In this document: positions 11,059 through 52,158 of the stretch, one piece after another | Layout: the number at the start of each line of letters is the position of its first letter | Position numbering within the stretch: the first letter of the stretch is position 1 | Source: Miltoncostaea oceani | GTDB taxonomy: Bacteria; Actinomycetota; Thermoleophilia; Miltoncostaeales; Miltoncostaeaceae | DNA: 64,000 bases | Reading direction: 5' to 3' | Assembly (NCBI RefSeq): GCF_018141545.1 | Contig: NZ_CP064356.1 | Coordinates: forward strand, 3,547,001-3,611,000 | The notes under the pieces: generated by a model | What the model saw: only the letters and a program-made list of their open reading frames with translations | Databases searched by the model: none | What the model was told of the DNA's origin: nothing | Made by a program: the position numbers and the translations under genes

Positions 11059-11069
11059 CGTCGCTCGCC

Positions 11070-11636
11070 GTGCTCCTCGACCAGAAGCGGACCAAGCGGA
11101 TGGTGCAGGTGGTCGCGATCATCACGTCGATCGCGTTCGCCGGCGTCATCTTCATCGTCCTGGGCCTGATCCTCTTCGGCGGGGGCGGCAACACCGTCGC
11201 CGACGACGAGCTCTCGGACGCGCGGGCGCTGGTGGAGGAGCGGCCGAACGACGCCGACGCGTGGGAGCGGCTGTCCGCCGCGCAGGCGGCGGAGGAGATC
11301 GGCCAGACGACCGAGGCCGTCGCGTCGGCGCGCCGGGCCGTCGAGCTCGACCCCCGCAGCTACCGACGCCTGCAGAGCCTCATCGCCCTCCAGATCCGCA
11401 CGGGCGACACGGAGGGGGCGATCACGTCGCTCCAGACGTACACGGCGGCGAACCCGCGGCGCGAGCCGGAGGCGTTCCTCCAGCTCGGGCAGATCGCCGA
11501 GGAGGCGGGGCGGACGCAGCTCGCCGAGCTGTCGTACCAGACGTTCCTGCGCCTCGCGCCGGACGACACCACCGCCGAGGAGGTCCGTGCGCGCCTCCAG
11601 GCCCTCCGCACCGGCGGGACCGCCACCGCTCCCTAG
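11070..11636 (+). CDS. Membrane-anchored tetratricopeptide protein
   Basis: The 188-residue protein has a basic N-terminus, one transmembrane helix (about residues 12-35), a Gly-rich linker and then TPR-like helices. Typical TPR spacing is seen in ARALVEERPNDADAWERLSAAQ, split here around A-rich turns, and again around residues 78-150. It is probably a membrane-tethered scaffold. The GTG start follows TAGCGT (11056-11061) by 8 nt, so it is likely transcribed on its own although it lies 11 nt after the amidohydrolase stop. No partner is obvious. Confidence 0.75.
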   Translation: MLLDQKRTKRMVQVVAIITSIAFAGVIFIVLGLILFGGGGNTVADDELSDARALVEERPNDADAWERLSAAQAAEEIGQTTEAVASARRAVELDPRSYRRLQSLIALQIRTGDTEGAITSLQTYTAANPRREPEAFLQLGQIAEEAGRTQLAELSYQTFLRLAPDDTTAEEVRARLQALRTGGTATAP

Positions 11637-31628: not shown

Positions 31629-32291
31629 CTAGGCTCCGGAGGTGACCGTCTCCAGGTACCGCGCCGCCAGCGCGATCCCTGTGGCCACCGCGCCACCGGT
31701 CGACGCCCCGAGCCGGCGCAGGTCGGCCAGCGCGGCGTCGCGGTCGCCCGCGGCGATCAGCCGGTGGACCGGCTCGGGCGCCGTGCCGCGGGACGCGGCG
31801 AGCAGGAGGAGGGTGGCCGACAGCGCCCCCGTCCGGGTCCGCACGTCCGGCGGGCACAGCGACCGGGCGAGCGCGTCGATGCGCCCGGCGGCGAGGCCCG
31901 CCGCGGGTCCGAGGGCCCGCAGGCCCGCCGCCGCGCCCGCGAGCACGTCGTCGCCCTCGGGGGTGAGACCCGGGCCGCGCCCGACGAGGCGCCCCGCCGC
32001 GGAGGCGAGCGGGACGTCCGGCGGGGCGACCCGCGGCAGGAGCCACGCCGCGAACGCCGCGAACGCCGCGGGGCCACCCGCCAGGGGCGGCACGACGGGG
32101 TCCCAGAGCGGCGGGTCGGCGGGGTCCCACCGCACGACCGGGGCGGGGGGCAGCCGGCCGAGCGCGACGCCGTTCGGCAGCCACGGCACCCCGGGGGCCG
32201 TCAGCGACACCACGAACCCGTCGAGGTCGAGGTGAACCGCCCCGCGGGCGACGCCCACGACCGGCAGGCGCCGCGGCCCGTCGAGCCGCAC
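31629..32291 (-). CDS. allH: DUF2877 protein, oxamate carbamoyltransferase subunit AllH-like
   Basis: The protein of about 220 residues carries the DUF2877 hallmark GPGLTPEGDDVLAGA near residue 110. DUF2877 proteins (E. coli AllH/YlbF) are a subunit of the FdrA-type oxamate carbamoyltransferase, which transfers carbamoyl between oxalurate and phosphate. The other two subunits are at 36035 (AllF) and 50764 (AllG), and a carbamate kinase is at 42961. GTG 32291 is chosen because GGGAGG sits 5 nt upstream. Unlike in E. coli, it is not in one operon with its partners. Confidence 0.82.
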   Translation of the reverse strand: MRLDGPRRLPVVGVARGAVHLDLDGFVVSLTAPGVPWLPNGVALGRLPPAPVVRWDPADPPLWDPVVPPLAGGPAAFAAFAAWLLPRVAPPDVPLASAAGRLVGRGPGLTPEGDDVLAGAAAGLRALGPAAGLAAGRIDALARSLCPPDVRTRTGALSATLLLLAASRGTAPEPVHRLIAAGDRDAALADLRRLGASTGGAVATGIALAARYLETVTSGA

Positions 32292-32324
32292 GGCGACCTC
32301 CCGCGACACGGCGCGGGCGACGAC

Positions 32325-32627
32325 GTGTGGATCGTCCCGCCGCCCGGCACCCGGATCGTCCAGACCGTGGTCATCGGCCCGTTCGTCGTCCAGCACCGCG
32401 AGGATCTGGGGATGGGGGCCTGCCGGCTGACCCGTCACCGGACCGCCCACGAGACCACGTTCGTGGTGATCGCGTACTCGGAGCGGTCGGAGATCGGGCT
32501 GCCCTGCCACGTCGTGCACCTCCGCGACGAGGCGGACGACCGCGAGTACGTGCTCGACACCGGCCTCGCCGGGCCGGGCCTGCCCACGGACTCCTTCACC
32601 ACGGAGCCCGCGGGCGGACGCGGCTGA
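32325..32627 (+). CDS. Small unknown protein divergent from allH
   Basis: This is a 100-codon frame starting at GTG 32325, or 71 residues from ATG 32412, which follows GAGGA at 7-nt spacing. The product has alternating beta strands (RIVQTVVIGPFVVQ, TTFVVIAYSE) and CHVVHL, with no motif I recognise. Amino acid usage looks protein-like, while the opposite strand does not. Real existence is plausible and the start uncertain. Confidence 0.45.
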   Translation: MWIVPPPGTRIVQTVVIGPFVVQHREDLGMGACRLTRHRTAHETTFVVIAYSERSEIGLPCHVVHLRDEADDREYVLDTGLAGPGLPTDSFTTEPAGGRG

Positions 32628-34441: not shown

Positions 34442-34867
34442 CTACCCGACCGGCTCCCCCAGGTGGTAGTGGATCTCCGGGGGTGACTGGATGGTGTTCG
34501 TGACCCAGCAGTAGCGCTTCGCCAGGTCCACCGCGGGCGCGAGGTCGGCGGCGGGGGTGGAGGACTCCACCCAGACGTCGTAGCGCCCGTGGCGGGGCTC
34601 GCCGGGGGCGCGGGTGGGGCGCACGCTGACCCGCAGGTCGTCGAGGGGGATGCGCCGCTTGCGCGCCGCCCACGCGACCGCGAGGCAGAAGCAGGACGCG
34701 AGGGCCGCGACGAGCACCTCCGTCGGCATGGGTCCGGTGTCCTCGCCACCGAACTCCTCCGGCTCGTCGACCCGCAGGCGGTGGCCGCGTCCCGCGACGT
34801 CGGTCGCCATGCCGCCCCGCCACTCGGCGGTCCACACGGCGTACTCGTGGTCGTCGGCGACGGGCAC
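34442..34867 (-). CDS. OsmC-family peroxiredoxin-like protein
   Basis: The 141-residue OsmC-fold protein has both conserved cysteines: one in ALASCFCLAVAWAARKR near residue 58 and one in RYCWVTNTI near 119. These reduce organic hydroperoxides in OsmC/Ohr proteins. The N-terminal WRGGMATDVAGRGH strand pair is also typical. It is the last gene of the operon LLM oxidoreductase - decarboxylase - AllF - glycosyltransferase - OsmC, lying 4 nt after the glycosyltransferase stop. The start is GTG 34867. Confidence 0.88.
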   Translation of the reverse strand: MPVADDHEYAVWTAEWRGGMATDVAGRGHRLRVDEPEEFGGEDTGPMPTEVLVAALASCFCLAVAWAARKRRIPLDDLRVSVRPTRAPGEPRHGRYDVWVESSTPAADLAPAVDLAKRYCWVTNTIQSPPEIHYHLGEPVG

Positions 34868-34871
34868 CGGC

Positions 34872-36038
34872 TCAGGCCGCCGCGATCTCGTCGTAGAGGG
34901 CCTCGTGGGCGGCGGCGGCGCGGTCCCAGCTGAAGCGGGCGGCGGTGTCCCGTCCCCCCGCCGCGAGCCGGGCGCGCAGGTCGCCGTCGTGCACGACCTC
35001 GACGAGGGCGGCGGCGAGCGCGTCGACGTCCCCGACCGGCGTCATGCGGCAGTCGCGGCCGTCGGCGAGGAACTCGCGGAGCACGGGGAGGTCGCTGACC
35101 ACGCACGGCAGCCCCGCCGCCTGCGCCTCGAGCACGACGAGGCCGAAGCCCTCGCGCTCGGAGGGGAAGGCGAAGACGTCGGCGGCGCGCATCAGCGCCG
35201 GCATCTCCCCGTCGGCGATCGGGCCGAGCACCGCGACGTCGGCGCCGACGGGGGGTCCGGGGCCGCGGTGGACGACCAGCCCGAGGTCGTGGGCGTCGCG
35301 CTCCCAGGCGTCCCGGTAGTCGGCGTAGTCGAAGAGGGTCTCGCCGCCGGCGATGGCGAGCAGGGCGCCGGCGCCGATGCCGGCGCGGGCCCGCGCGAAC
35401 GCGGCGAGCAGGGCCCGGCTGCCCTTGCGCGGCTCGATCCCGCCGATCGCGAGGACCGTGGGGCGCCCGTCCCAGCCGAGGTGCTCGCCCGCCGCGGCGC
35501 GGTCGAGGGGGCAGTCCGCGAACCGCCGGCCGTCGACGCCGTTCGAGATGACGCGCGCCGTGACGCCGTGGTCGCGCCGCAGCACGTCCGCCCAGTGCGC
35601 GCTGACGCAGACGCGGTGGTCGACGTCCTCGATCGAGGCGCGCTGGCACTCGGCGAGCACCGGGCTGGCGAAGTCGTCGACGTGGTGGACGGTGCGCACG
35701 ACGTGCGGGACGCGCCCCTCGGCGCGGAGGGCGAGGAGGGAGCGCGCCGACAGGCAGTCCTCGCTGTGGTGGATGTCGGCGGGTCCCGCGGCGCGCATGC
35801 CCTCGGCGAGCGTCGCCGCGTAGCGCAGGATGCGGGGCTCGACGTCCTCCCCGGGACGGCGGTCGACCGGCACGAGGCGGACCGGCACGCGCGGCTCGCG
35901 GAAGAAGCGCGCGCCGTCGGCGGAGAGGGCCCACAGCTCGACGTCGTGGCCGCGGTCGCCGAGGGCCTCGGCGAGGCTGAGGGCGTGGACGACCCCGCCG
36001 CGCGGCTTGGTCGAGTACGTCACCAACCGGACCCTCAC
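34872..36038 (-). CDS. MSMEG_0565-family GT4 glycosyltransferase
   Basis: The 388-residue GT-B glycosyltransferase has the family opening RLVTYSTKPRGGVVHALSLAEAL (read in parts) and VRTVHHVDDFASPVLAECQ. The donor-site stretch FPSEREGFGLVVLEAQAAGLP has the EX7E glutamates. These features identify the group found in Nit1-type nitrogen clusters of mycobacteria (MSMEG_0565). Acceptor and product are unknown. It overlaps the allF stop (GTGA), linking a Nit1-cluster gene directly to an oxamate-carbamoyltransferase gene. Confidence 0.85.
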   Translation of the reverse strand: MRVRLVTYSTKPRGGVVHALSLAEALGDRGHDVELWALSADGARFFREPRVPVRLVPVDRRPGEDVEPRILRYAATLAEGMRAAGPADIHHSEDCLSARSLLALRAEGRVPHVVRTVHHVDDFASPVLAECQRASIEDVDHRVCVSAHWADVLRRDHGVTARVISNGVDGRRFADCPLDRAAAGEHLGWDGRPTVLAIGGIEPRKGSRALLAAFARARAGIGAGALLAIAGGETLFDYADYRDAWERDAHDLGLVVHRGPGPPVGADVAVLGPIADGEMPALMRAADVFAFPSEREGFGLVVLEAQAAGLPCVVSDLPVLREFLADGRDCRMTPVGDVDALAAALVEVVHDGDLRARLAAGGRDTAARFSWDRAAAAHEALYDEIAAA

Positions 36039-37495
36039 CCGGCGAGCGCCGCGGCGAGCCGCGCGGCGGCGGCGTTGGTCGGCGCGAGCCGGACGCCGGC
36101 GTCGGCGAGCACGGCCTCCTGGCGCGAGCGGACCTGGGGGTCGGCCTCGGTGCCGAGGACGTACGCGACGACCGCGAGCTGGGGCCGGGCGGCGAGGGCC
36201 TCGCGGATCACGGGCGCCAGCACGCCCGCCGGGTCGTCGTGGCTCGAGTACCCGAGCACCACGTCGAGCAGCAGGACGCCCACGTCGGGGTCGGCCGCGT
36301 CGATCGCGAGGCGCTCCGCGCGGGCGGCGGGGTCGATCATGGGGTGGGGCCGGCCGCGGGTGTACTCCTCCTCCCCGAGGTCGATGCAGGCGTGTCCGCG
36401 GGGTTCGCCCTCGAGCGGCCGGGCCCGCCCGGCGGGGGCGTTGGTGCGGACGGTGCCGAGGCGCTCCGCGAGGATCGCCGCGGCCTCGGAGCAGAGGGTG
36501 CCGCCGGAGAACAGGCCGCGGACGTCGCCGCCCGACACCCAGCCGGCGCGCGGCGGCGGGACGGGGGACGCCGGGTGCCCCGCGAGGCCCGCGGCGATCA
36601 GGGCGGCCTCCTCGAGGGTCCCGGCGAGCGCGACGCCGTCGACGGGGTCGACCCCGCCGCCGACCATGCACGCCACGGCGGGGGTGCCGCACTCCGCCAG
36701 CGCCCGCAGCACCCGCCCGGCGACGGCCGGGGACGGGGGCTTCGAGACGCAGAGGATGACGTCGGTGCCGGGGTCGGCGGCGAGGCGGGCGATGGCGTCG
36801 AGGGCGGTGACCGCGCCGACGTCGTCCTTGAGGTCGCGCCCGCCGGTGCCGTAGCAGCGGCTCACCCCCGCCCCCGCCCGGTCGAGGAGCACCGTGACCT
36901 CCTGGGCCCCGGTGCCGGCCGCGGCGACGACGCCCACCGACCCGCGGGCCACCACGTTCGCGAAGCCGAGGGCGACGCCGTCGATGATCGCCGTCCCGGC
37001 GCCCGGTCCCATGACGAGCAGGCCGAGGTCGTGGGCCCGGGTCTTCAGGGCGACCTCGTCGGCGACGGTGACCCCGTCGCTGAAGAGCAGGACGTCCATG
37101 CCGGCGCCGAGGGCCTTGTGCGCCTCGAGCGCCGCGTACTCCCCGGGGACCGAGACGACCGCGACGTCGGCGGACGCGGACGCGAGGCTCCGGGGGCCGC
37201 GGACGGCCGGTCCGCCGGTGGCGGTCGCGCCCGGCGCGCGGTCGAGGACCTCCTCGGCGGCGTCCGCGCCCTGCTCGGCGCCCTCGCCGAGCACGGCGAT
37301 CACCAGGTCGTCGGGGCCGGCGGCGTCGATCGCGGGGTCGGTGATGCCGAAGCCCGCGGCCTCCTCGCGGTTCGCCGGCGTGCCCATGAAGCAGAGGGCG
37401 CGGGTGACGCCGTCGGCGGACTCCGCGGCGCGGGCCGCGGCCATCATCTTCGCGCTGTCGGCCCAGCGGCCGCCGCGGACCCGGACGACGCTCAC
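36035..37495 (-). CDS. allF: FdrA/AllF-type acyl-CoA synthetase-like carbamoyltransferase subunit
   Basis: The 486-residue protein has the two halves of the FdrA family. The first is a CoA-binding-like domain with LLFSDGVTVADEVALK, GPGAGTAIIDGVALGFANVV and AAAGTGAQEVTVLLDRAGAG. The second is a ligase-like domain with GLFSGGTLCSEAA, DLGEEEYTRGRPHPMID and LLLDVVLGYSSHDDPAG. E. coli FdrA/AllF is a subunit of oxamate carbamoyltransferase with AllG and AllH. The E. coli protein is somewhat longer. The GTG start overlaps the decarboxylase stop. Confidence 0.87.
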   Translation of the reverse strand: MSVVRVRGGRWADSAKMMAAARAAESADGVTRALCFMGTPANREEAAGFGITDPAIDAAGPDDLVIAVLGEGAEQGADAAEEVLDRAPGATATGGPAVRGPRSLASASADVAVVSVPGEYAALEAHKALGAGMDVLLFSDGVTVADEVALKTRAHDLGLLVMGPGAGTAIIDGVALGFANVVARGSVGVVAAAGTGAQEVTVLLDRAGAGVSRCYGTGGRDLKDDVGAVTALDAIARLAADPGTDVILCVSKPPSPAVAGRVLRALAECGTPAVACMVGGGVDPVDGVALAGTLEEAALIAAGLAGHPASPVPPPRAGWVSGGDVRGLFSGGTLCSEAAAILAERLGTVRTNAPAGRARPLEGEPRGHACIDLGEEEYTRGRPHPMIDPAARAERLAIDAADPDVGVLLLDVVLGYSSHDDPAGVLAPVIREALAARPQLAVVAYVLGTEADPQVRSRQEAVLADAGVRLAPTNAAAARLAAALAG

Positions 37496-38730
37496 AGGCC
37501 CGACACCACGCGGCCCTCGGTGCCGGCGAGCAACGGCTCCGCCTGCGCGCCGAGCGCCTCGTCGTCGGTCTCGCGGGCGCGGAGCAGGGTCGCGCGGCCC
37601 GCCTCGACGAGCACCGCGCCGGGGCGCAGGTGGATGAACGGGGAGGCCTGCGCCATCGCGTAGGCGCCGGTCTGGCCGATCCACACGAGGTCGCCGACCG
37701 CGAGCGGCGGCAGCGGCACCTCCCGGGCGACCGCGTCGTGCTGCAGGCAGAGCGGCCCGTAGAGGTCGGTGGGGCGCTCGGCCCCCGGGCGCGGCGCGGC
37801 GACCCGCACCGGCGAGCGCTTCCACTGGACACACGGGACCTGGGTGATGCCGACGTCCACCACGAGTCTTCCCCTCCCCCTCTTCGCGACGACACGGGTC
37901 AGCAACCAGCCGGCGTCGCGGATGAGCGCGCGGCCGGGTTCGAGGATCAGCGGCGGGTGGCCGGGGCCGAGCGCGGCGCGCACGGCGTCGAGGTGGCCGG
38001 ACAGCGCCGACGCGGCCGGCCAGCCCCCGCCGAGGTCGAGCCACCGGATGCCGCCGACGCGCGCGGCGACGTCGCGCAGGAGCGCCCCCGCCGCGGCGAA
38101 GCGCTCCACCGGCACCGGGTACTCGACGGTCACGCCGTGGATCGGCGGGCCGGTCGGCGGCAGCGGGCCGAGCTGGTAGGCGCCGAGGTGGATGTGCAGA
38201 CCGGTGAGCGGCAGGCCGGCGCGCGCGAGCAGCGCGGCGGAGGCCGGCGCGAGGCGCGGCGGCACCCCGAAGCGGTCGCGGCCGACCCGGTCGGGCGGGA
38301 TGAGGCGCAGGCCGACCCGGGCCCCGGGCGCCGCGAGGTGGGCGAGGCCGGCGATGGCACGCACCTGCTCGACCCCGTCGGCGACGACGGTCGCGCCCTC
38401 GGCGAGGGCGCGGCGCAGGTCGTCGTCGGTCTTGAGCGGCCCGTTGAAGACGATCCGCGACCCGGGGACGCCGGCGCGGCGGGCGATCCGGTACTCGTGG
38501 CCGGACGCGACCTCCGCGCCGCACCCGGCGCGGTGCAGGCGAGCGACGACGCCCATCAGCGGGTTCGACTTCATCGAGTAGGCGACGGTCACGTCCGGGC
38601 CGGCGACGGCCTGGAACGCCCGCGCCTCGCGCTCCATGCGGGCGCCGTCGAACACGTAGAGGGGGGTGCCGAAGCGCGCGGCCAGGCCGGCGGGGTCCCC
38701 GGGGGGTCCGTCGGGCACGGCGCGGATCAT
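37492..38730 (-). CDS. PLP-dependent decarboxylase, DAP/ornithine decarboxylase fold
   Basis: The 412-residue alanine-racemase-fold decarboxylase opens FGTPLYVFDGARM and carries the Schiff-base lysine K54 in YSMKSNPLMG. FNGPLKTDDDLRRAL, HIHLGAYQLG, LDLGGGWP (PLP phosphate), EPGRALIRDAGWLL and the C-terminal GAYAMAQASPFIHLRP complete the barrel-plus-sheet architecture. The FNGP and HLGAYQLGP segments resemble decarboxylases of siderophore or carboxynorspermidine type more than LysA. The substrate is unknown. It lies between the LLM oxidoreductase and AllF with ATGA and GTGA overlaps. Confidence 0.85.
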   Translation of the reverse strand: MIRAVPDGPPGDPAGLAARFGTPLYVFDGARMEREARAFQAVAGPDVTVAYSMKSNPLMGVVARLHRAGCGAEVASGHEYRIARRAGVPGSRIVFNGPLKTDDDLRRALAEGATVVADGVEQVRAIAGLAHLAAPGARVGLRLIPPDRVGRDRFGVPPRLAPASAALLARAGLPLTGLHIHLGAYQLGPLPPTGPPIHGVTVEYPVPVERFAAAGALLRDVAARVGGIRWLDLGGGWPAASALSGHLDAVRAALGPGHPPLILEPGRALIRDAGWLLTRVVAKRGRGRLVVDVGITQVPCVQWKRSPVRVAAPRPGAERPTDLYGPLCLQHDAVAREVPLPPLAVGDLVWIGQTGAYAMAQASPFIHLRPGAVLVEAGRATLLRARETDDEALGAQAEPLLAGTEGRVVSGL

Positions 38731-39710
38731 GCCGCCGCCCGGTCGCGCAGCAGCGGCCAGACCCGCGTGGCGACCCGCTCGGCCTCCTCGCGGTGGGGGT
38801 AGCCCGACCCGATGACGAGGTCGACCCCGGCCGCGCGGTACGCCCGCAGCAGCGCCGCGACCTGGGCGTGGGCGCCGACGAGGGCCGTGCCGGCGCCGCC
38901 GCGGACGGACCGGATGCCGGCCCAGAGGCCCGGCGCCACCCAGCCGTCGCCGTCGGCGTCGATCTCGTTCATGCGGGCCTGGCCGACGCTGTCGAACGCC
39001 GCGTACTCGCCGGCGCGGGCGTCGCGCACCTCGGCCCGCTCCACCAGCCGGGCGGCGGCGGCGCGCGCCTCGCGCTCGGTGTCGCGGGAGATCAGGTGGA
39101 TCCGCAGGCCGAAGCGCATCGGCCGCCCCGCACGCGCCCGCATGTCGGCGATCCGGGCGGCGATCGCGTCGGGCGGCTCGCCCCACATCAGGTACGTGTC
39201 GGCGACCCGCGCCGCCAGGTCGAGCGCCGCCGGGCTGGCGCCGCCCAGGTAGAGCGGGCCGTCGAAGGCGCCGCGGAGGGTGTCGGCGAGCTCCCCGAGC
39301 CGCGCGTAGCGGGCGTCGTGGTCGAGCGGCGGCGCCCCGTACCCCGTGTCGGGGCCGCCGCCCGCGACGAGGTTGACCGCCACCCGGCCGGGGGCGATCG
39401 CGGCGAGGGTCCGCACCTGGTGGGCGACGAGCCCCGGCAGCAGGGCGGCCGGGTTGACGGCGACGAGCAGGCGGATGCGGCGGGTGAGCACCGCCAGCGC
39501 GGCCGCGGTCGTCCAGCTCTCCATGAACGGGGCGTCCGGGGCGAACGAGTCGTTCACCGTCCCGGTCGGGATGAGGATCTCGGTGGCCCCGGCGCGCTCG
39601 GCGGCGAGGGCCACGGAGGCGAGGTGGTCGATGGTGGGCGCCAGCTCGGGCGCGCGGGTGCCGAGCCGTCGCCCGTCACCCTCCGAGGGGCAGTACCAGC
39701 CGAGCTCCAT
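38727..39710 (-). CDS. LLM-class flavin-dependent monooxygenase
   Basis: The 327-residue bacterial-luciferase-fold protein resembles SsuD-type enzymes: ELGWYCPSEGDG start, SVALAAERAGATEILIPTG, VNLVAGGG (flavin phosphate region), LYLGGASPAALDLAARVADTYLMWGEP and SGYPHREEAERV. These FMNH2-dependent monooxygenases cleave C-S, C-N or ring bonds, RutA being an example from pyrimidine catabolism. It heads the operon with the decarboxylase, AllF and glycosyltransferase. ATG 39710 lies 10 nt after a TAGGAT box, so its leader is very short. Confidence 0.88.
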   Translation of the reverse strand: MELGWYCPSEGDGRRLGTRAPELAPTIDHLASVALAAERAGATEILIPTGTVNDSFAPDAPFMESWTTAAALAVLTRRIRLLVAVNPAALLPGLVAHQVRTLAAIAPGRVAVNLVAGGGPDTGYGAPPLDHDARYARLGELADTLRGAFDGPLYLGGASPAALDLAARVADTYLMWGEPPDAIAARIADMRARAGRPMRFGLRIHLISRDTEREARAAAARLVERAEVRDARAGEYAAFDSVGQARMNEIDADGDGWVAPGLWAGIRSVRGGAGTALVGAHAQVAALLRAYRAAGVDLVIGSGYPHREEAERVATRVWPLLRDRAAA

Positions 39711-40763: not shown

Positions 40764-41597
40764 ATGGGAACCACCGCACCGTCCGCGCCGGACTACGCCG
40801 CGATCACGCGGCGCCAGCAGACCGTCTGGTCGGGCGGCGACTACTCCGCCGTCGCGGCGCGGATCACCCTGATCTCCGAGCGCCTCGCCGACTCCGCCGA
40901 CCTGCGCTCCGGCAGCCGCGTGCTCGACGTCGCCGGCGGCAGCGGCAACACCGCCCTCGCCGCGGCGCGCTGCGGCGCCGATGTCGTCTCCCTCGACTAC
41001 GTGCCGTCGCTGCTGGAGCGCGGTCGCGAGCGCGCCCGGGCGGAGGGCCTGGAGGTCGAGTACGTGGAGGGCGACGCCCAGGCGCTGCCGTTCACCGACG
41101 CGTCGTTCGACGCCGTGATCTCCGCCGTCGGCGTGATGTTCGCCCCCGACCAGGCCACCGTCGCCGCCGAGATGCTGCGCGTCTGCCGGCCGGGCGGCAC
41201 GATCGCGATCGCCAACTGGACGCCGGACGGCTTCATCGGCGGCCTCCTGCGGACCGTCGGCGCGCACGTGCCGCCGCCCGCCGGGGTGGCGTCGCCGCTG
41301 CTCTGGGGCACCGAGGACCACGTGCGCACGCTGTTCGGGGCGGGCGTCGAGGACGTGCGGACGCGCCGACGCCACCAGGTGTTCCGCTTCGACTCGCCGG
41401 AGGCCTTCACGGGGTTCTTCCGCGAGATGTACGGCCCGACGCGCACCGCCTTCGGGACGCTGACCGACGAGGGCGGGCGGGCGCTCGCCGGCGAGATCGG
41501 CGACCTGGTGCGCCGCTTCGACCGCCTCGGCGGCGACGGGCCCGTCGCCATCCCGGCGGAGTACCTCGAGGTCGTGGCGACCCGGACCGCGCACTAG
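40764..41597 (+). CDS. Class I SAM-dependent methyltransferase
   Basis: The 277-residue protein has the UbiE-like methyltransferase core: VLDVAGGSGNTALAAARCGADVVSLDYVPSLL (read in parts), EGDAQALPFTDASFDAVISAVGVMFAPD, and MLRVCRPGGTIAIANWTPDGF. The substrate is unknown; TetR control suggests a stress or detoxification role, such as methylating a toxic compound. A strong ribosome binding site GAGGAGG lies 6 nt before ATG 40764. The stop overlaps the convergent aminotransferase-like gene by 4 bp. Confidence 0.88.
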   Translation: MGTTAPSAPDYAAITRRQQTVWSGGDYSAVAARITLISERLADSADLRSGSRVLDVAGGSGNTALAAARCGADVVSLDYVPSLLERGRERARAEGLEVEYVEGDAQALPFTDASFDAVISAVGVMFAPDQATVAAEMLRVCRPGGTIAIANWTPDGFIGGLLRTVGAHVPPPAGVASPLLWGTEDHVRTLFGAGVEDVRTRRRHQVFRFDSPEAFTGFFREMYGPTRTAFGTLTDEGGRALAGEIGDLVRRFDRLGGDGPVAIPAEYLEVVATRTAH

Positions 41598-42961
41598 CGC
41601 CCGGTCCCCGCGGCGACCACGTCGGCGATGCGCCGGCCGCGGGCGGTGCCGTACGAGAGGAACAGGTCCCGGACCGCCTCCCGGTACACGCCGCTCGCGG
41701 CCTCGGCGCACGCGTCGTCCCACGCGCCCGCCAGGCGCTCGAGGGCGGACGGGTCGGGGTCGCTCAGGTTCACGCGGATGGTGGTGGTCGCACCGACGTC
41801 GCCGAGGCCGTCGCCGGGGTAGACCGCGATGTGGCGGGCGCAGAGCGCGACGGTCAGCTCCTGGGCGCTCGCCCCGGTGCCGGAGACGTCGACGACGCAC
41901 GAGAACCCGTAGGACGGGTCGATGACCGGGGTGGCGATGGCCCGCAGCCGGGCGAGGTTGCCCCGGATGACCTCCTCGCCGCCCCGCAGCCACGCGTCGT
42001 CGACGAGGGCCGCGGCCGCGCCGACCTGCGCGACGCGGTTCGTGTTGAGGCGGACCGCGGCGATCTTGACCTGCAGGCACGCGCGGACGAGGGCCGGGTC
42101 GCCGCCGAGGGCGCCGATGCGCGCGCCGGCCATGCCGTGCCCGTGGGCGAGGCCGCTCGACACGAGGAGCGTGGCGCCGGGCCGGCCGCGCTGCACGTCG
42201 GCGACGGGGTGGTGGCGGGCGGCGGGGTCGACGCGGTGCGACGAGTGGGTGGTGTCGGCGAGGATCACGATGCCGTGCTCCTCCGACAGGGCGAGCAGGG
42301 CGTCGAGCTCGTCGCGGCGCTGCACCGTCCCGAACGGGTTCACCGGGTCGCAGACGACGATCATCTTCGTCCGCGGCGTGAGGGCGGCCGCGACGGCGTC
42401 CGGGTCGAGCCGCCACCCCGACGAGGCCGCCAGGTCGACCCACACCGGCACGCCTCCCGCGAGGCGCAGCGCCGGGACGAAGTGGAAGTAGCCGGGGTCG
42501 GTGACGATCACCTCGTCGCCGGGGTCGATGCAGGCGAGCGCCGCGTAGCCGACCCCCGCCTGCGCGCCCTCGGTGCCGATGACGTCGAACCCGTCGTCGC
42601 GGGCGCGGCCGAGCAGCCGGGTGGCCATGAGGTCGCGCAGCGGCTCGTCGAGGTCGGGCGAGTACGGGCCGACGTGCTCCGCGTCGACCGCCCCGCGCAT
42701 CGCGTCGAGGGCGCGCGGCGACGGGCCGATGTGGTTCGCCATCCAGCCGAGGTCGGCCCACTCGGCCCGGTCGAGGGCGATCGCCCCGTCCCGGTACACG
42801 TCGGCAGGGTCCCACCCGAGGATCCGGTAGGCGTCGCGGTAGGTCATGTAGTTGCCGAACCCCTGGGGGTCGGCGAGCACCGCGCGGGCGCGCTCCGATG
42901 CGAGCGGCACGTCGGCGGGGGCCGGGGGGCGCCACGTCAGCACCGACCGGGCGCGCGCCAT
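41594..42961 (-). CDS. Fold-type I aminotransferase homologue lacking the PLP lysine
   Basis: The 455-residue protein follows class I/II aminotransferases: GTEGAQAGVGYAALACIDPGDEVIVTDPGYFHF, DPVNPFGT, ILADTTH (Asp that binds PLP nitrogen) and the substrate Arg in TTTIRVNLSD. At the position of the SxSK Schiff-base lysine it reads SSGLAHGHGMAGARIG, with His in place of Lys and no other Lys near. It may be a non-canonical PLP enzyme like ColD, which uses His, or a non-catalytic protein. The ATG overlaps the carbamate kinase stop (ATGA). Confidence 0.82.
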   Translation of the reverse strand: MARARSVLTWRPPAPADVPLASERARAVLADPQGFGNYMTYRDAYRILGWDPADVYRDGAIALDRAEWADLGWMANHIGPSPRALDAMRGAVDAEHVGPYSPDLDEPLRDLMATRLLGRARDDGFDVIGTEGAQAGVGYAALACIDPGDEVIVTDPGYFHFVPALRLAGGVPVWVDLAASSGWRLDPDAVAAALTPRTKMIVVCDPVNPFGTVQRRDELDALLALSEEHGIVILADTTHSSHRVDPAARHHPVADVQRGRPGATLLVSSGLAHGHGMAGARIGALGGDPALVRACLQVKIAAVRLNTNRVAQVGAAAALVDDAWLRGGEEVIRGNLARLRAIATPVIDPSYGFSCVVDVSGTGASAQELTVALCARHIAVYPGDGLGDVGATTTIRVNLSDPDPSALERLAGAWDDACAEAASGVYREAVRDLFLSYGTARGRRIADVVAAGTGR

Positions 42962-43893
42962 CAGGGCGTGATCCGGGTGCCGCCGCGGCCGGCGAGGGCC
43001 TCGGCGACGCGCTCGAGCGACGTGACGATGGCGCTCGACCCGCCCCCCGCGATGAACTGGGCGGCCGCCTCGATCTTCGGCCCCATGCTGCCCGCGGGGA
43101 ACTGGCCGTCGGCCATGTGGGCCCGCGCCTCGGCGACGGTCATCGTCGCGACGGGACGCTCCTGCGGCGTGCCGAAGTCGAGGAGGACCTGGTCCACGCC
43201 CGTCACCAGCAGCAGGGCGTCGGCGCCGACGAGCGCGCCGATCAGCGCCGCGGCGAAGTCCTTGTCGATCACGGCGTCGACGCCGACGAGGTCCTCCCCG
43301 TCGCGGGCGACGGGGACCCCGCCGCCCCCACACGCGACGACGACCTCCCCCGCGTCGAGCAGGCTCCGGATCTCCCCGGCCTCGACCACCTCGACCGGCG
43401 TCGGCGACGCGACGACCCGCCGCCAGCCGCGCCCCGAGTCCTCGGCCACCGTCCACCCGCGCGACTCGGCGAGCCGCCGCGCCCGGCCCTCCGAGAAGAA
43501 CGGGCCGATCGGCTTCGTCGGGTTCTCGAAGGCGGGGTCGTCGCGGTTCACGACCACCTGGGTCATCACCGCCGCGACCGTGCGCTCCCGTCCCGCGGCG
43601 ACCATCGCGTCGCCGACGGCCTGGGAGAGGAGGTAGCCGAGCTGGCCCTGGGTCATCGCGCCGAGCGCGAAGAGCGGTTGCGGCGGGACCTCCCGCGCGA
43701 CGGCCTCCTGGGCCATCGCGAGCGCCCCGACCTGGGGGCCGTTGCCGTGGACGATCAGCAGGCGGTCGCCGTTCGCGAGGATCGCCACCGCGGTGCGCGC
43801 GACCTCGCGGGCCCGCTCCTCCTGGTCCCGGAAGGCACCGAGGCCCGCGGGTGCGAGAGCGTTGCCACCGATGGCCAGCACGACCGTCGCCAT
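42961..43893 (-). CDS. arcC: Carbamate kinase
   Basis: The 310-residue protein carries carbamate kinase landmarks: VLAIGGNALAP, LIVHGNGPQVGALA, FALGAMTQGQLGYLLSQA, ENPTKPIGPF, VACGGGGVPV, GVDAVIDKDFAAALIG, and FPAGSMGPKIEAA. It makes ATP from carbamoyl phosphate and ADP. With AllF, AllG and AllH in the same region it probably plays the part of E. coli AllK, drawing ATP from carbamoyl phosphate released by the carbamoyltransferase. ATG 43893 follows GAGGAGGT on the minus strand. The aminotransferase-like gene follows directly. Confidence 0.95.
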   Translation of the reverse strand: MATVVLAIGGNALAPAGLGAFRDQEERAREVARTAVAILANGDRLLIVHGNGPQVGALAMAQEAVAREVPPQPLFALGAMTQGQLGYLLSQAVGDAMVAAGRERTVAAVMTQVVVNRDDPAFENPTKPIGPFFSEGRARRLAESRGWTVAEDSGRGWRRVVASPTPVEVVEAGEIRSLLDAGEVVVACGGGGVPVARDGEDLVGVDAVIDKDFAAALIGALVGADALLLVTGVDQVLLDFGTPQERPVATMTVAEARAHMADGQFPAGSMGPKIEAAAQFIAGGGSSAIVTSLERVAEALAGRGGTRITP

Positions 43894-44058: not shown

Positions 44059-44544
44059 GTGGCGAAGATCGAGGGAATGAAGCCCGAGGCCGGCCAGGAG
44101 CTCTACGACGTCGCGGAGAAGGTCTTCCCCGACATCAAGGCCGAGCCTGGCGAGGAGGCATGGATCTTCATGCACACCGTGCCCTACGAGGGTTCGGTGG
44201 GGCTCGTCAACCTGCTCACGGCGACGCGCCTGGGCCGCAAGGGTTTCAAGGTCAGCCTGGTGCTCTACGGGCCGGGCGTGCTGATGGCGTCGGGCACCCG
44301 CGGGTACCCGGCCGTCGGCCAGGAGGCCTTCCCGGGTCACATGGCGATCAACAACCAGCTGAAGACCCTCATGTCCGAGGGGGCGACGATCTACGCGTGT
44401 CGCTTCGCCATGGGCGCCCTCTACGGCTTCCGCGAGGACGACCTGATCCCCGGGGTCAAGGCCTTCAACCCGCTGGACGTGCTCGACTCCGCGCTCACCG
44501 CGTGGCGGAACAAGGCCTTCCAGCTGAACACCTGGACGGTCTAG
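44059..44544 (+). CDS. Sll0783/MSMEG_0572-family nitrogen-starvation protein
   Basis: The 161-residue protein (VAKIEGMKPEAGQELYDV start; EEAWIFMHTVPYEGSVGLVNLLTATRLGRKGFKVSLVLYGPGV, read in parts) matches the marker protein of Nit1-type clusters. Its Synechocystis homologue Sll0783 is induced by nitrogen starvation and affects polyhydroxybutyrate accumulation. The biochemical activity is unknown; the fold resembles DsrE-like proteins, with Cys in YACRFAMGALYG. GTG 44059 has GGGAGGAG at 6-nt spacing. It heads the operon with 44573, the amidohydrolase, radical SAM and GNAT genes. Confidence 0.9.
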   Translation: MAKIEGMKPEAGQELYDVAEKVFPDIKAEPGEEAWIFMHTVPYEGSVGLVNLLTATRLGRKGFKVSLVLYGPGVLMASGTRGYPAVGQEAFPGHMAINNQLKTLMSEGATIYACRFAMGALYGFREDDLIPGVKAFNPLDVLDSALTAWRNKAFQLNTWTV

Positions 44545-44572: not shown

Positions 44573-45199
44573 GTGAGCGATCGCGACGACATCCTCAGGC
44601 GGTGGCGGCAGGGAGAGGAGCGCCTCTACCCCGTCGCCACCGTCCGTCCCGACCTCTACGAGGCCGTGGTCGGCGTCGTGCGCGCCCTCGCGGACCATCT
44701 CTCCACGGTCCCCGACCTCGACGCCCTCGTCATCACGTTCCGCACCGCGGGGCGTGACGACGAGCTGCGGGCGGCGGGGGTGCGGACCGTGGAGCTGTCG
44801 CCCGAGATCGACCTCGACCTGGTGCGCGACGCCGCATACCAGGTGCGGGCGCGCGAGCTGTCGATGCGCGCCTCGTCCGAGAGGACGGGGGCCGCGATAC
44901 GGCGGGCCCGCGCGGCCGGGGAGACCACCGCCGTGATCTGGGCGGAGGGGGAGCGCGAGCTCTGGCCGCCCTACCGGCGCGTCGAGATGTCGGTGTCCAC
45001 GGGGCGGGCCGTCGCGGTCTCGACCGCGATGGACCCCGACACCATGACGCCGCGCTACGCCCTGGAGGGGATCGCGCTCGACCCCGGCACCGGCGAGGCG
45101 CTCGACGCCGAGCCGATCGCGCCCCGGCGCGAGTTCTCCGACCCCGACGAGTGGCGCGCGGCGGCGGCGGCGCTCCGCGAATCCCTCCTGACCAGCTGA
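44573..45199 (+). CDS. Unknown 208-residue protein of the Nit1-like operon
   Basis: The soluble protein starts at GTG 44573, 28 nt after the Sll0783-like stop. It has an alpha-helical N-terminus (RRWRQGEERLYPVATVRPDLYEAVVGVVRALADHL, in parts), a beta region with VELSPEIDLDLVRDAAYQVRA, and a C-terminal domain with YRRVEMSVSTGRAVAVSTAMDPDT. No cysteine pair, nucleotide loop or membrane segment is present. I know no family for it. Its fixed place between two Nit1-type genes makes it a candidate extra component of that pathway. Confidence 0.8.
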   Translation: MSDRDDILRRWRQGEERLYPVATVRPDLYEAVVGVVRALADHLSTVPDLDALVITFRTAGRDDELRAAGVRTVELSPEIDLDLVRDAAYQVRARELSMRASSERTGAAIRRARAAGETTAVIWAEGERELWPPYRRVEMSVSTGRAVAVSTAMDPDTMTPRYALEGIALDPGTGEALDAEPIAPRREFSDPDEWRAAAAALRESLLTS

Positions 45200-45215: not shown

Positions 45216-46079
45216 GTGTCCCTGCCCGAAGGAATGAAGCGCAACGTGGTCGACGGCCACGCCCACATCGGCGAGATCGAGGCCTGGCCGTTCTACGGCA
45301 TCGACCATCCCGTGAAGCCGATCGTCTACGACTTCCCGCGGGCGAAGGACTACCTCAAGTACATGGACCGGTACGGCATCGAGCGCAGCCTCTGCATGTC
45401 GAACTACGGGATCCCGAAGCCCGAGCAGCCCTTCTCCCTGAACCCCGTGGTGATGGAGGCCGCGACGAGCAGCGACCGCATCCGCGGACTGCTGTGGGTG
45501 TCGTTCCTGCCGCGGGACAAGGAGCACACCCTCGAGGCCCTGAAGCACTGCGGCGAGGCCGGGATCATCGGCCTGAAGACGACGTTCCTGCTGGGGGGCA
45601 ACCCCAACCCCGAGGAGTGGGACGAGGAGACCAAGGCGATCGCCGACATGTGCTTCGACGCCTGCGAGAAGCACGACTACGTCTTCCACTTCCACACGTC
45701 GGCCGGCGGCAACAGCGACATCAACAACTTCATCCCGATGGTCGAGGCCTACGGGAAGCGCTGCAAGATCCACCTCGTCCACTTCGGCGGCGGCGTCAGC
45801 GGCCACATCAAGCTGGTGCCGAAGTTCCTGCAGTGGGTGAAGGACGGCTACAAGGTCTACACCGACACCTCGTGGGCGATCGGGTTCGGGGCCCGCTGGC
45901 TGCTCGTCGAGATCGAGAAGCAGGGGATCGGCGGCGACCGCGTCCTCTTCGGGTCCGACGAGCCGTGGTCCGACTTCATGAGCGAGTACTGGAAGATCGA
46001 GGGCGCCCCCGTCTCCGAGGAGCTGAAGAGGATGGTCCTGGTGGACAACTTCACGAAGCTCCACGAGAAGCACTGGTGA
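45216..46079 (+). CDS. TIM-barrel amidohydrolase in the Nit1-like operon
   Basis: The 287-residue amidohydrolase-2-type enzyme has metal ligands of the short family: HAHIG (HxH) near residue 16, GLKTTFLLGG on strand 4, YVFHFHTSAGG, KIHLVHFGGG, and the catalytic Asp in LFGSDEPWSD. It probably hydrolyses an amide or decarboxylates a small acid. It occupies the position where Nit1 clusters normally have a nitrilase, so it may replace it functionally. GTG 45216 follows GGGAGA; its stop overlaps the radical SAM start (GTGA). Confidence 0.88.
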   Translation: MSLPEGMKRNVVDGHAHIGEIEAWPFYGIDHPVKPIVYDFPRAKDYLKYMDRYGIERSLCMSNYGIPKPEQPFSLNPVVMEAATSSDRIRGLLWVSFLPRDKEHTLEALKHCGEAGIIGLKTTFLLGGNPNPEEWDEETKAIADMCFDACEKHDYVFHFHTSAGGNSDINNFIPMVEAYGKRCKIHLVHFGGGVSGHIKLVPKFLQWVKDGYKVYTDTSWAIGFGARWLLVEIEKQGIGGDRVLFGSDEPWSDFMSEYWKIEGAPVSEELKRMVLVDNFTKLHEKHW

Positions 46080-47245
46080 GCACGACCCGGATCCCGCCGT
46101 CGGACACCGGGTTCGACATCAAGACGCTCGCCGTCGAGCTGCAGTCGCTCGGCGTCCGGACCCGCGGCGGGACCCCCACGGGGCCCGGCGCGACCCGGGC
46201 GGGCGGCGCCGGCCCGTCGGACGCCGGCTTCGTCTGGATCGACGGCGCCCCGCTGACCGTCCCCGTGCACGGCGACTACGTGTCGCGGTCCCCGTACGAG
46301 CTGGTCATGCACAGCTCGGGCAAGGCGGGGCGGCTGCTGCGCGACGGCGTCGAGATCGGCCCGGTGCACCTGCACCCGCGCCCCCGGATCTACGACCTGG
46401 AGACGGCCGACGGGGTGCCGTACTGGAAGATCGCCCTGATGCACCTCGACAGCCTCGCGTCGACGGTGTTCCAGCGGTGCGTCTACTGGGGCACCGACGA
46501 GCAGTGCCACTTCTGCGCCATCGGCACGAGCCTCGCGAACGGCCGGACGGTGCCGGTGAAGACGCCGGCGCTGCTCGCGGAGGTGGCGGAGGCCGCCGCG
46601 CGGCTCGACGGCGCGAAGGACGTGACCCTCACCACGGGGACGCCGAACCGCGACGACCGGGGCGCGGCCTACATGGCGCGGTGCGCCGAGGCGATCCGCG
46701 AGTCGAGCGGCCTGCCGGTGCAGGTGCAGCTCGAGCCGCCGCACGACTTCGGCTGGTTCGCACGGCTGAAGGACAGCGGCGTCGAGGCCCTCGGCCTGCA
46801 CCTCGAGGTCTGGGACGAGGACGTCCTGCGGCGCGTCGCCCCGGGCAAGCACGCCCAGGGACGCGAGCTCTACCTGTCGGCCTGGGAGGCGGCGGTCGAG
46901 GTCTTCGGCCGCGGCCAGGTCTCGACGTACTTCATCCTCGGCCTCGGCGAGTCGGCGCAGTCGGTGATGGAGGGCTGCCGGGCCGCGATCGACCGGGGCG
47001 TCTACCCGTTCGTCGTGCCGCTTCGGCCGGCGCCGGGGAGCATCGTGGCGCACGAGACCCCGCCGTCGGTGGACTACATGCGCGAGGTCTACGAGATGGT
47101 GGCGCCGCTGCTGGCCGACGCCGAGATGCTCAGCCAGGGCGCCCGCGCGGGCTGCGTGCGCTGCCAGGCATGCTCGGCGCTCAGCACGTTCGAGCGGGCG
47201 TTCGGCGGCGGACGCGACGGGCAGCCGGCCGAGGAGGCCGCCTGA
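46076..47245 (+). CDS. MSMEG_0568-family radical SAM protein
   Basis: The 389-residue protein has C135, C144 and C147 in the spacing CX8CX2C (CVYWGTDEQCHFC), not the standard CX3CX2C. This, with TLTTGTPNRDDRG and the AYTLGLGE-like YFILGLGES, matches the MSMEG_0568/Sll0785 group of Nit1 clusters. A second Cys set GCVRCQAC at the C-terminus could bind an auxiliary iron-sulfur cluster. The reaction is unknown. It is tightly coupled to the amidohydrolase upstream and to the GNAT gene downstream (TGATG). Confidence 0.9.
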   Translation: MSTTRIPPSDTGFDIKTLAVELQSLGVRTRGGTPTGPGATRAGGAGPSDAGFVWIDGAPLTVPVHGDYVSRSPYELVMHSSGKAGRLLRDGVEIGPVHLHPRPRIYDLETADGVPYWKIALMHLDSLASTVFQRCVYWGTDEQCHFCAIGTSLANGRTVPVKTPALLAEVAEAAARLDGAKDVTLTTGTPNRDDRGAAYMARCAEAIRESSGLPVQVQLEPPHDFGWFARLKDSGVEALGLHLEVWDEDVLRRVAPGKHAQGRELYLSAWEAAVEVFGRGQVSTYFILGLGESAQSVMEGCRAAIDRGVYPFVVPLRPAPGSIVAHETPPSVDYMREVYEMVAPLLADAEMLSQGARAGCVRCQACSALSTFERAFGGGRDGQPAEEAA

Positions 47246-50760: not shown

Positions 50761-50775
50761 GTCATGGGCACACTA
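50752..50775. promoter_or_regulatory. Interlocked divergent leaderless promoters of the AIR-synthase-like gene and allG
   Basis: TAGGTT (50752-50757) lies 6 nt before ATG 50764 of allG but inside the first codons of the minus-strand gene. TAGTGT (minus, 50770-50775) lies 9 nt before ATG 50760 but inside the first codons of allG. The two start codons are 3 bp apart. Confidence 0.6.
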
Positions 50776-52158
50776 CGGATCGCCACCGTCGGACTGGACC
50801 TCATGGCGGAGGCCCTCCGGGCCCAGGACGCCGACGTCACCGCGGTCGACTGGCGCCCCCCGGGAGGGGGCGACCCGGAGGTCGTGCGGGCGCTGACGGC
50901 GACGTACGGGGACCCCCGCGTCGGGGAGGCGAACGCCCGGGCGCTGGCCCGCCTGCAGGAGGCGCGGCCGATGATCGTCGGCGCCGGCCCGGCGGGGGAG
51001 CTGATCCCCGGGCTCGAGGGCCGGATGGTGCTGCACGCCGGCCCCCCGGTGGAGTGGGAGCGGATGTGCGCCCCGCAGCGCAACGCCGTGACCGGCGCGT
51101 GCATCCTGGAGGGGTGGGCCTCGGGGCCGCAGGAGGCCGCCGACCTGGTCGCCCGCGGTGGCGTGCGCCTCGCGCCGGCCCACTCCCTCGAGGCGGCCGG
51201 GGCGATGTGCGGCGTCATCTCCCCCTCGATGGCGTGCTGGGCGGCGCGCGACGAGATCGGCGGCGGGGTCGGCTACAGCCCCTTCAACGACGGGCCGGGC
51301 GACGCGTTCTGGCTCGGCGTCGGCTCGCCGGAGGCGATCCGACGTCAGCGGCTCATGGCCGACGAGGTCGCGCCGGGCTTCGCGGCGGCGTTGCGGGCCG
51401 AGGGCCCGATCGACGCCCTCGCCCTCTGCGCGCAGGGCATCGCGATGGGCGACGACTGCCACATGCGCCACCAGGCGACGACGATGCTGCTGCTGCGGCA
51501 GGTGCTGCCGGCCATGGCCGAGCACGCCCCCGCCGCGGTCCTGCCGACGGCGCGCCTGCTCGGCGGCAACGGCCACTTCGCCCTGACCGTGACCATCGCC
51601 GCCGCCCGCGCGGCGCTCGCGGGGATCCGGGGGATCCCCGCGTCGAGCCTCGTGGTGTTCATCAGCCGCAACGGCACCGACGCCGCCGTCCAGATCGCCG
51701 GGTTGCCGGACCGCTGGTTCACATTCCCGGCGCCGCTGGTCGGCGACCCCCTCTACCGCCCCGGCTTCTCCGACGACGACGCGGCGCCCGACATCGGCGA
51801 CTCGGCCCTCGTGGAGTGCGCGGGCCTCGGCGGCGCCGCGAGCGCCGCCAGCCCGGGCGTCGCGGCGTTCCTGGGCGGCGGCCTGCAGGACGCGATCGAG
51901 CGGACGCGCCGGATGGGCGACATCTGCATCGGGCGCAGTGAGCGGCTGCGGATCCCCACCCTCGACGGCGAGGGCACCCCGCTCGGGGTGGACGCCCGCG
52001 CCTGCGTCGACCTGGGCGAGACGCCCCTCATCAACACCGGCATCCTGCACCGCGAGGACGGCGGCCAGATCGGGGCGGGCATCGCCGTCACGCCCGTCGA
52101 GCCGATCCGGGACGCGCTGCGCGCCCTGGCGGCGCACCTGGAGGACGGTCCGCGGTGA
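50764..52158 (+). CDS. allG: DUF1116 protein, oxamate carbamoyltransferase subunit AllG-like
   Basis: The 464-residue DUF1116 protein (E. coli AllG/YlbE type) has DWRPPGGGDPEVVRAL near the start and GPPVEWERMCAPQRNAVTGACILEGWA (in parts), a characteristic block in these proteins. Further marks are GDDCHMRHQATT, GGNGHFALTV, SRNGTDAAVQIAGLPDRWF and IGAGI near the end. AllG works with AllF/FdrA and AllH in oxamate carbamoyltransferase. This completes the trio within the window. It starts without a leader and overlaps the following methyltransferase by GTGA. Confidence 0.88.
   Translation: MGTLRIATVGLDLMAEALRAQDADVTAVDWRPPGGGDPEVVRALTATYGDPRVGEANARALARLQEARPMIVGAGPAGELIPGLEGRMVLHAGPPVEWERMCAPQRNAVTGACILEGWASGPQEAADLVARGGVRLAPAHSLEAAGAMCGVISPSMACWAARDEIGGGVGYSPFNDGPGDAFWLGVGSPEAIRRQRLMADEVAPGFAAALRAEGPIDALALCAQGIAMGDDCHMRHQATTMLLLRQVLPAMAEHAPAAVLPTARLLGGNGHFALTVTIAAARAALAGIRGIPASSLVVFISRNGTDAAVQIAGLPDRWFTFPAPLVGDPLYRPGFSDDDAAPDIGDSALVECAGLGGAASAASPGVAAFLGGGLQDAIERTRRMGDICIGRSERLRIPTLDGEGTPLGVDARACVDLGETPLINTGILHREDGGQIGAGIAVTPVEPIRDALRALAAHLEDGPR

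What the first reader, a model, noticed from the sequence alone, without database searches (positions are those of the whole stretch)
42120..42200. Aminotransferase-fold protein with His in place of the PLP lysine
The family motif SxSK...GxRxG reads SSGLAHGHGMAGARIG; no Lys exists in this stretch, while the PLP Asp and the carboxylate Arg are kept. A His at this place is known from ColD, a PMP-dependent dehydratase. Translational coupling to carbamate kinase suggests an unusual reaction in the carbamoyl pathway.
Basis: partly seen in the sequence, partly recalled or inferred. Interest (0 to 1): 0.68.

Follow-up and report, generated by a model that had tools for sequence, protein, structure and literature searches.

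The report
Lysine-less aminotransferase family with active-site histidine
A protein built like a vitamin-B6 aminotransferase lacks the lysine such enzymes use to hold their cofactor and has a histidine there instead; the swap is conserved across two bacterial phyla, which suggests an unusual, uncharacterised B6 enzyme in an uncharacterised nitrogen-related pathway.

Summary
The gene (41594-42961, minus strand, 455 aa) is a class I/II aminotransferase-fold protein (Pfam PF00155, E 2e-35; AlphaFold model pLDDT 90, Z 38.9 to Thermus aspartate aminotransferase). The PLP-lysine position is His273. It is no sequencing error: among 27 aligned homologues from Thermoleophilia and Ca. Dadabacteria/Thermodesulfobacteriota, 26 have His and one has a one-codon deletion, against Lys in 17 of 17 comparison aminotransferases. 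PLP Asp, Asn, phosphate Arg and alpha-carboxylate Arg are kept; Tyr225 is also His; Lys299 and Arg304 are invariant. The family is one fully supported clade. It lies in a conserved cluster: AllF/AllG/AllH-like oxamate-carbamoyltransferase subunits, carbamate kinase, a LysA-like decarboxylase, and MSMEG_0572, radical-SAM and glycosyltransferase proteins shared with Nit1C cyanide-assimilation clusters, without the Nit1C nitrilase. The coupling to carbamate kinase is real, but adjacency occurs only in Miltoncostaeaceae. Most likely the protein binds PLP/PMP non-covalently and uses His273 as acid-base catalyst, as in ColD, on an alpha-carboxylate substrate. ColD is a nucleotide-sugar enzyme of another family, so it is an analogue. 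Substrate and reaction are unknown and activity is unproven.

The parts
41594..42961 (-). His-type aminotransferase-fold protein, 455 aa, ATG start
   Evidence: ORF; PF00155 E 2.4e-35; AlphaFold model pLDDT 90.3, VIA Z 38.9 to 5bj4
42143..42145 (-). codon of His273 at the PLP-lysine (K258) position
   Evidence: alignment: 26/27 His with one deletion, versus 17/17 Lys in other aminotransferases
42254..42256 (-). codon of Asp236 (pyridine-N Asp, D222 position), kept
42245..42247 (-). codon of His239 at the Tyr225 position
   Evidence: 27/27 His versus Tyr/Phe in 17/17 others
42119..42121 (-). codon of Arg281 (PLP phosphate Arg, R266 position), kept
41774..41776 (-). codon of Arg396 (alpha-carboxylate Arg, R386 position), kept
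42065..42067 (-). codon of Lys299, the only invariant Lys of the family, in model helix 289-302
42050..42052 (-). codon of Arg304 (RLNTN motif), family-specific; may line the partner subunit's active site (inference)
   Evidence: 27/27 versus none of the comparison set
42961..43893 (-). carbamate kinase, 1-nt stop/start overlap with the His-type gene
   Evidence: TIGR00746 366.9 bits, cut-off 358.25; junction
36035..37495 (-). FdrA/AllF homologue (start inferred)
   Evidence: NF004760 427.5 bits, just under cut-off 433; PF00549
37492..38730 (-). LysA-like fold-type-III PLP decarboxylase
   Evidence: PF02784/PF00278; TIGR01048 157.8 bits, below cut-off; homologue in most related loci
38727..39710 (-). 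luciferase-like monooxygenase; found in Miltoncostaeaceae loci only
   Evidence: PF00296, nearest NCBIfam alkanesulfonate monooxygenase; distribution
34872..36032 (-). MSMEG_0565-family glycosyltransferase
   Evidence: TIGR04047 393.4 bits over cut-off
34445..34828 (-). OsmC-like protein (extent of the tblastn match)
   Evidence: 40% identity to the OsmC-family gene of the L053 cluster, itself PF02566
33068..34396 (-). FAD-dependent pyridine-nucleotide-disulphide oxidoreductase
   Evidence: PF07992; conserved in most related loci
31629..32519 (-). AllH homologue (true start uncertain)
   Evidence: PF11392 E 2.4e-14
50764..52158 (+). AllG homologue
   Evidence: PF06545 E 2.1e-58
44077..44544 (+). 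MSMEG_0572/Sll0783-family protein
   Evidence: TIGR04044 199.5 bits over cut-off
45216..46079 (+). amidohydrolase (PF04909)
   Evidence: conserved in the cluster
46076..47245 (+). radical SAM protein, homologue of an MSMEG_0568-family member
   Evidence: 38% identity to L053 gene that passes TIGR04043

Best explanation
This is a class I/II aminotransferase-fold enzyme that has given up the internal-aldimine lysine. It binds PLP or PMP without a covalent bond, held by Asp236, Asn208, Tyr158 and Arg281, and recognises an alpha-amino or alpha-keto acid through Arg396. His273 stands where the lysine was and moves the proton between cofactor C4' and the substrate. The version I commit to: PMP condenses with an alpha-keto acid carrying a beta leaving group; His273 takes the C4' proton; the leaving group is expelled (dehydration or elimination); an amino donor regenerates PMP, as in ColD. 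It acts in a pathway that makes or breaks a carbamoylated nitrogen compound together with AllF/G/H-like carbamoyltransferase, carbamate kinase and the LysA-like decarboxylase. Shown: fold (predicted model and profile matches), residue substitutions, conservation, gene neighbourhood. Inferred: cofactor binding, His as base, substrate class, elimination rather than plain transamination.
For: His at the Lys position in 26 of 27 aligned homologues across two phyla, Lys in 17/17 controls, with Asp, Asn, both Arg and an aromatic at the W140 position all invariant; all further Dadabacteria copies also His. dN 0.11-0.17 against dS 0.52-0.60 shows purifying selection. The family is one side of a 100/100-supported branch. 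Fold confirmed by model. Precedent: in ColD/E1/SpnQ a His in place of the Lys is the catalytic acid-base with PMP (PMC8987622); an engineered aspartate aminotransferase K258H keeps catalytic activity (title of Malashkevich 1995, cited in PMC10029208; the paper itself was not read). Cluster conservation.
Against: No biochemical evidence that this family binds B6. Invariant Lys299 could have a role at a partner active site; the model gave no coordinates to measure this. One homologue (L045/L017, genome G008) lacks the His in an otherwise intact cluster. Elimination versus transamination cannot be told from sequence. Substrate unknown.
Confidence: 0.55

Rival explanations
1. It is a transaminase that works slowly or specially without the lysine: His273 only does the aldimine-ketimine proton shift and no leaving group is lost.
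For: Alpha-carboxylate Arg396 and the overall aminotransferase site are kept; the K258H aspartate aminotransferase precedent (reference seen).
Against: A family-wide loss of Lys together with Tyr225 to His suggests selection for different chemistry rather than a poorer transaminase (inference).
Confidence: 0.25
2. A catalytically dead pseudo-enzyme that serves as a regulator or as a scaffold or binding subunit of the cluster's enzymes.
For: Loss of the key Lys; one member has even lost the His; lysine-less partner subunits are known in the superfamily, such as LCB1 of serine palmitoyltransferase (own knowledge).
Against: The replacement is one specific residue, a competent base, rather than drift, and all other cofactor residues are invariant in 27 sequences. 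No lysine-bearing class I partner was seen in the cluster.
Confidence: 0.14
3. The Schiff-base lysine has moved: Lys299, the only invariant lysine, binds PLP.
For: Lys299 is invariant in 27/27, and comparison aminotransferases have mixed residues there.
Against: In the model Lys299 lies in helix 289-302, after the phosphate-Arg strand 283-287, outside loop 271-277 that carries the canonical lysine; a migrated internal aldimine would be very unusual (own knowledge). Distance not measured.
Confidence: 0.06

Closest known systems
ColD / E1 / SpnQ nucleotide-sugar 3-dehydratases
   Same: Aminotransferase fold with the catalytic Lys replaced by His; PMP cofactor and His acid-base are established there (PMC8987622)
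   Different: Those are related to sugar aminotransferases and act on nucleotide sugars; E1 and SpnQ carry a [2Fe-2S] cluster. This protein is PF00155, matches PF01041 only over residues 144-241, and keeps the amino-acid carboxylate Arg
Class I (I-gamma) aspartate / prephenate / kynurenine aminotransferases
   Same: Same fold (Z 35-39) and cofactor residues D236, N208, R281, R396
   Different: No PLP lysine; Tyr225 is His; invariant Lys299/Arg304 and an N-terminal block with invariant NYxxYRD
GntC (guanitoxin) and VioD capreomycidine synthase
   Same: Among the best NCBIfam matches (GntC E 2.3e-33); GntC structure Z 37.1
   Different: Far below the GntC cut-off (115.6 versus 415 bits); those enzymes use lysine (own knowledge)
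Nit1C cyanide-assimilation cluster
   Same: Shares MSMEG_0572/Sll0783, MSMEG_0568 radical SAM and MSMEG_0565 glycosyltransferase families; Nit1C gene list from PMC11049912
   Different: No Nit1C-type nitrilase over cut-off in 7/7 genomes tested; has allFGH-like genes, carbamate kinase, decarboxylase and the His-type protein
E. coli AllFGHK oxamate carbamoyltransferase plus carbamate kinase
   Same: Homologues of AllF, AllG, AllH and a carbamate kinase; function of AllFGHK from PMC11326118
   Different: Not one operon here; no allantoin-pathway genes were noted around it; substrate unknown

Membership tests
Pfam Aminotran_1_2 (PF00155), aminotransferase-fold class I/II | profile match over the curated cut-off | tested here: met
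   122.8 bits versus cut-off 19.7
Pfam Aminotran_1_2 (PF00155), aminotransferase-fold class I/II | class I aminotransferase three-dimensional fold | tested here: met
   pLDDT 90.3 model; Foldseek E 2e-24; VIA Z 38.9 over 354 residues
canonical PLP aminotransferase (enzyme class) | Schiff-base lysine after the SxS motif | tested here: not met
   His273 at this position
canonical PLP aminotransferase (enzyme class) | Asp for pyridine N, Asn194, Arg266, Arg386 | tested here: met
   D236, N208, R281, R396 invariant in 27/27
ColD/E1/SpnQ 3-dehydratases | His in place of the catalytic Lys | tested here: met
ColD/E1/SpnQ 3-dehydratases | sequence membership in the DegT/DnrJ/EryC1/StrS sugar-aminotransferase family | tested here: not met
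   PF01041 52.4 bits over residues 144-241 only, against PF00155 122.8 bits over 123-413; PF01041 clears its own cut-off but is much the weaker, partial match
ColD/E1/SpnQ 3-dehydratases | PMP cofactor and nucleotide-sugar substrate | not testable with these tools
   needs purified protein
Nit1C cluster | NitB (MSMEG_0572) and NitD-type radical SAM present | tested here: met
   the equation of NitB with MSMEG_0572 and NitD with MSMEG_0568 is my reading of the gene lists
Nit1C cluster | sll0784/NitC-type nitrilase | tested here: not met
   0 of 7 genomes over the TIGR04048 cut-off
AllFGHK oxamate carbamoyltransferase system | AllF, AllG, AllH and carbamate kinase encoded | tested here: met
   AllG, AllH and carbamate kinase over cut-offs; FdrA/AllF 427.5 versus 433, just below
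AllFGHK oxamate carbamoyltransferase system | oxamate/oxalurate as substrate | not testable with these tools
   needs an assay

The most novel reading that the evidence does not exclude
A second, independent origin of lysine-free vitamin-B6 catalysis, in class I aminotransferases acting on amino or keto acids, as a step of an undescribed carbamoyl-linked pathway shared by Thermoleophilia and Dadabacteria and related to Nit1C clusters.
Probability: 0.45. Interest if true: 0.78.

Novelty: new variant of a known kind. Interest (0 to 1): 0.62.

Why it matters
Nearly all PLP enzymes depend on a lysine; the natural His replacements I know of are nucleotide-sugar dehydratases. A conserved lysine-to-histidine family in class I, with the amino-acid carboxylate Arg kept, would show that the route was taken more than once and on another substrate class. 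It also points to an uncharacterised pathway that joins a recently identified carbamoyltransferase type (AllFGH) with the Nit1C genes, whose chemistry beyond the nitrilase is unclear.

Tried and rejected
Sequencing error or chance: rejected, because His recurs in independently assembled genomes of two phyla. Membership in the ColD/DegT family: rejected on the Pfam comparison; nucleotide-sugar dehydratases were also not among the 50 listed VIA rows, which by itself is inconclusive. Plasmid origin: no plasmid record covers 80% of the query in one place. Strict co-occurrence with AllG: 11 of 12 His-type genomes in the relatives set have AllG (the exception is 67% complete), but AllG also occurs in 17 genomes without the His-type gene. 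Phylum-wide sample: only Miltoncostaeaceae genomes were hit in 396. Literature searches found no report of this family or of a class I Lys-to-His family, within an open-access library only. Lys299 distance to the cofactor could not be measured because model coordinates are not exposed.

Full report
Observation. The minus-strand ORF 42961..41594 encodes 455 residues. It matches Pfam PF00155 (E 2.4e-35), and its best PDB relatives are class I aspartate aminotransferases. The motif SSGLAHGHGMAGARIG aligns with SGFAKTYAMTGWRVG of 1j32, so the first His, His273 (codon 42143-42145), replaces the PLP lysine. The protein has only two lysines, K199 and K299.

It is a family trait. Relatives were found in Miltoncostaeaceae (50-86% identity), in Solirubrobacterales and other Thermoleophilia MAGs, and in Ca. 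Dadabacteria/Thermodesulfobacteriota MAGs (44-49%). In the phylum-level group of one Dadabacteria genome, 22 of 58 genomes carry a family member; a 23rd hit (L104) is an ordinary Lys aminotransferase. In the 27-sequence alignment A2 the position is His in 26 and deleted in one, against Lys in 17 of 17 comparison aminotransferases. D236, N208, R281, R396, Y158 and Y100 are invariant. Tyr225 is replaced by His239 in all 27. K299 and R304 are invariant and not shared consistently with other aminotransferases. dN/dS is 0.2-0.3. A maximum-likelihood tree puts all 27 on one side of a 100/100-supported branch of length 1.5; long branches make the exact placement among lysine aminotransferases unsure.

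Exception. L045/L017/L070 (one MAG, genome G008) reads SGLAGLGLASIRLG, a clean one-codon deletion of the His position in an intact open frame and an intact cluster. It is either a natural loss of function or a binning or assembly oddity; I have no explanation.

Fold. AlphaFold2 on A2 gives pLDDT 90.3 and pTM 0.90. Foldseek and VIA-align place it with Thermus aspartate aminotransferase (Z 38.9, rmsd 2.4, 354 residues) and GntC (Z 37.1). The His lies in the canonical lysine loop (271-277) between strands 264-270 and 283-287; K299 lies in helix 289-302.

Context. In this window: carbamate kinase (TIGR00746 over cut-off), FdrA/AllF (just under cut-off), AllG (PF06545), AllH (PF11392), MSMEG_0565 glycosyltransferase, LysA-like decarboxylase, luciferase-like monooxygenase, FAD oxidoreductase, MSMEG_0572, amidohydrolase and radical SAM. 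Most of these recur around the homologues in the other lineages where contigs are long enough. AllG was confirmed in 5 of 5 host genomes tested across lineages. Nit1C families are shared, but the Nit1C nitrilase is absent in 7 of 7 genomes. The stop/start overlap with carbamate kinase is present in Miltoncostaeaceae only; elsewhere the upstream neighbour is a Methyltransf_20 protein and, in some Dadabacteria, the downstream one is a CysK/CBS-like PLP enzyme followed by the decarboxylase.

Mechanism. In ColD, E1 and SpnQ a His at this position abstracts the C4' proton of the PMP-substrate Schiff base and drives loss of a hydroxyl (PMC8987622). By analogy, and because the carboxylate Arg is kept, I infer a His-based PMP/PLP reaction on an alpha-amino or alpha-keto acid, most likely with loss of a beta group. 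AllFGH of E. coli interconverts oxalurate and phosphate with oxamate and carbamoyl phosphate (PMC11326118), so a carbamoylated intermediate in this cluster is plausible but not shown.

Verdict. Observation confirmed; ColD is an analogue in mechanism, not a family home; the carbamate kinase link is real but lineage-specific adjacency. New variant of a known kind, in an uncharacterised cluster.

Noticed in passing
L045 (also L017, L070), 10001-11335: A homologue lacking the His by a clean one-codon deletion (SGLAGLGLASIRLG), although the frame, other site residues and whole gene cluster are intact.
   Followed up: partly
L053 8060-8515; homologues in L050, L065, L066: A 151-aa protein that joins an FdrA N-terminal segment (NF004760 over residues 7-84) to an AllG-like N-terminal piece, in the same Dadabacteria clusters as AllF/AllG/AllH; possibly an extra mini-subunit.
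   Followed up: partly
window 44077-44544: The MSMEG_0572/Sll0783-family protein is 98.7% identical to that of L039, where the His-type protein is 81% identical: unusually strong conservation.
   Followed up: no
L057 and L065 (same MAG OFTM111); genomes G438, G468: Some Dadabacteria/Deltaproteobacteria MAGs carry two copies of the His-type gene.
   Followed up: no
L066 4440-5501: A divergent carbamate-kinase paralogue (29% identity) sits in the Bacterium HR37 cluster.
   Followed up: no
L053 8530-9126; homologues in L048, L050, L058-L061, L064-L066: A conserved protein without a family match over cut-off sits directly upstream of the methyltransferase and the His-type gene.
   Followed up: no
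window 44573-45199: Protein without any Pfam or NCBIfam match, conserved between MSMEG_0572 and the amidohydrolase in Thermoleophilia clusters.
   Followed up: no
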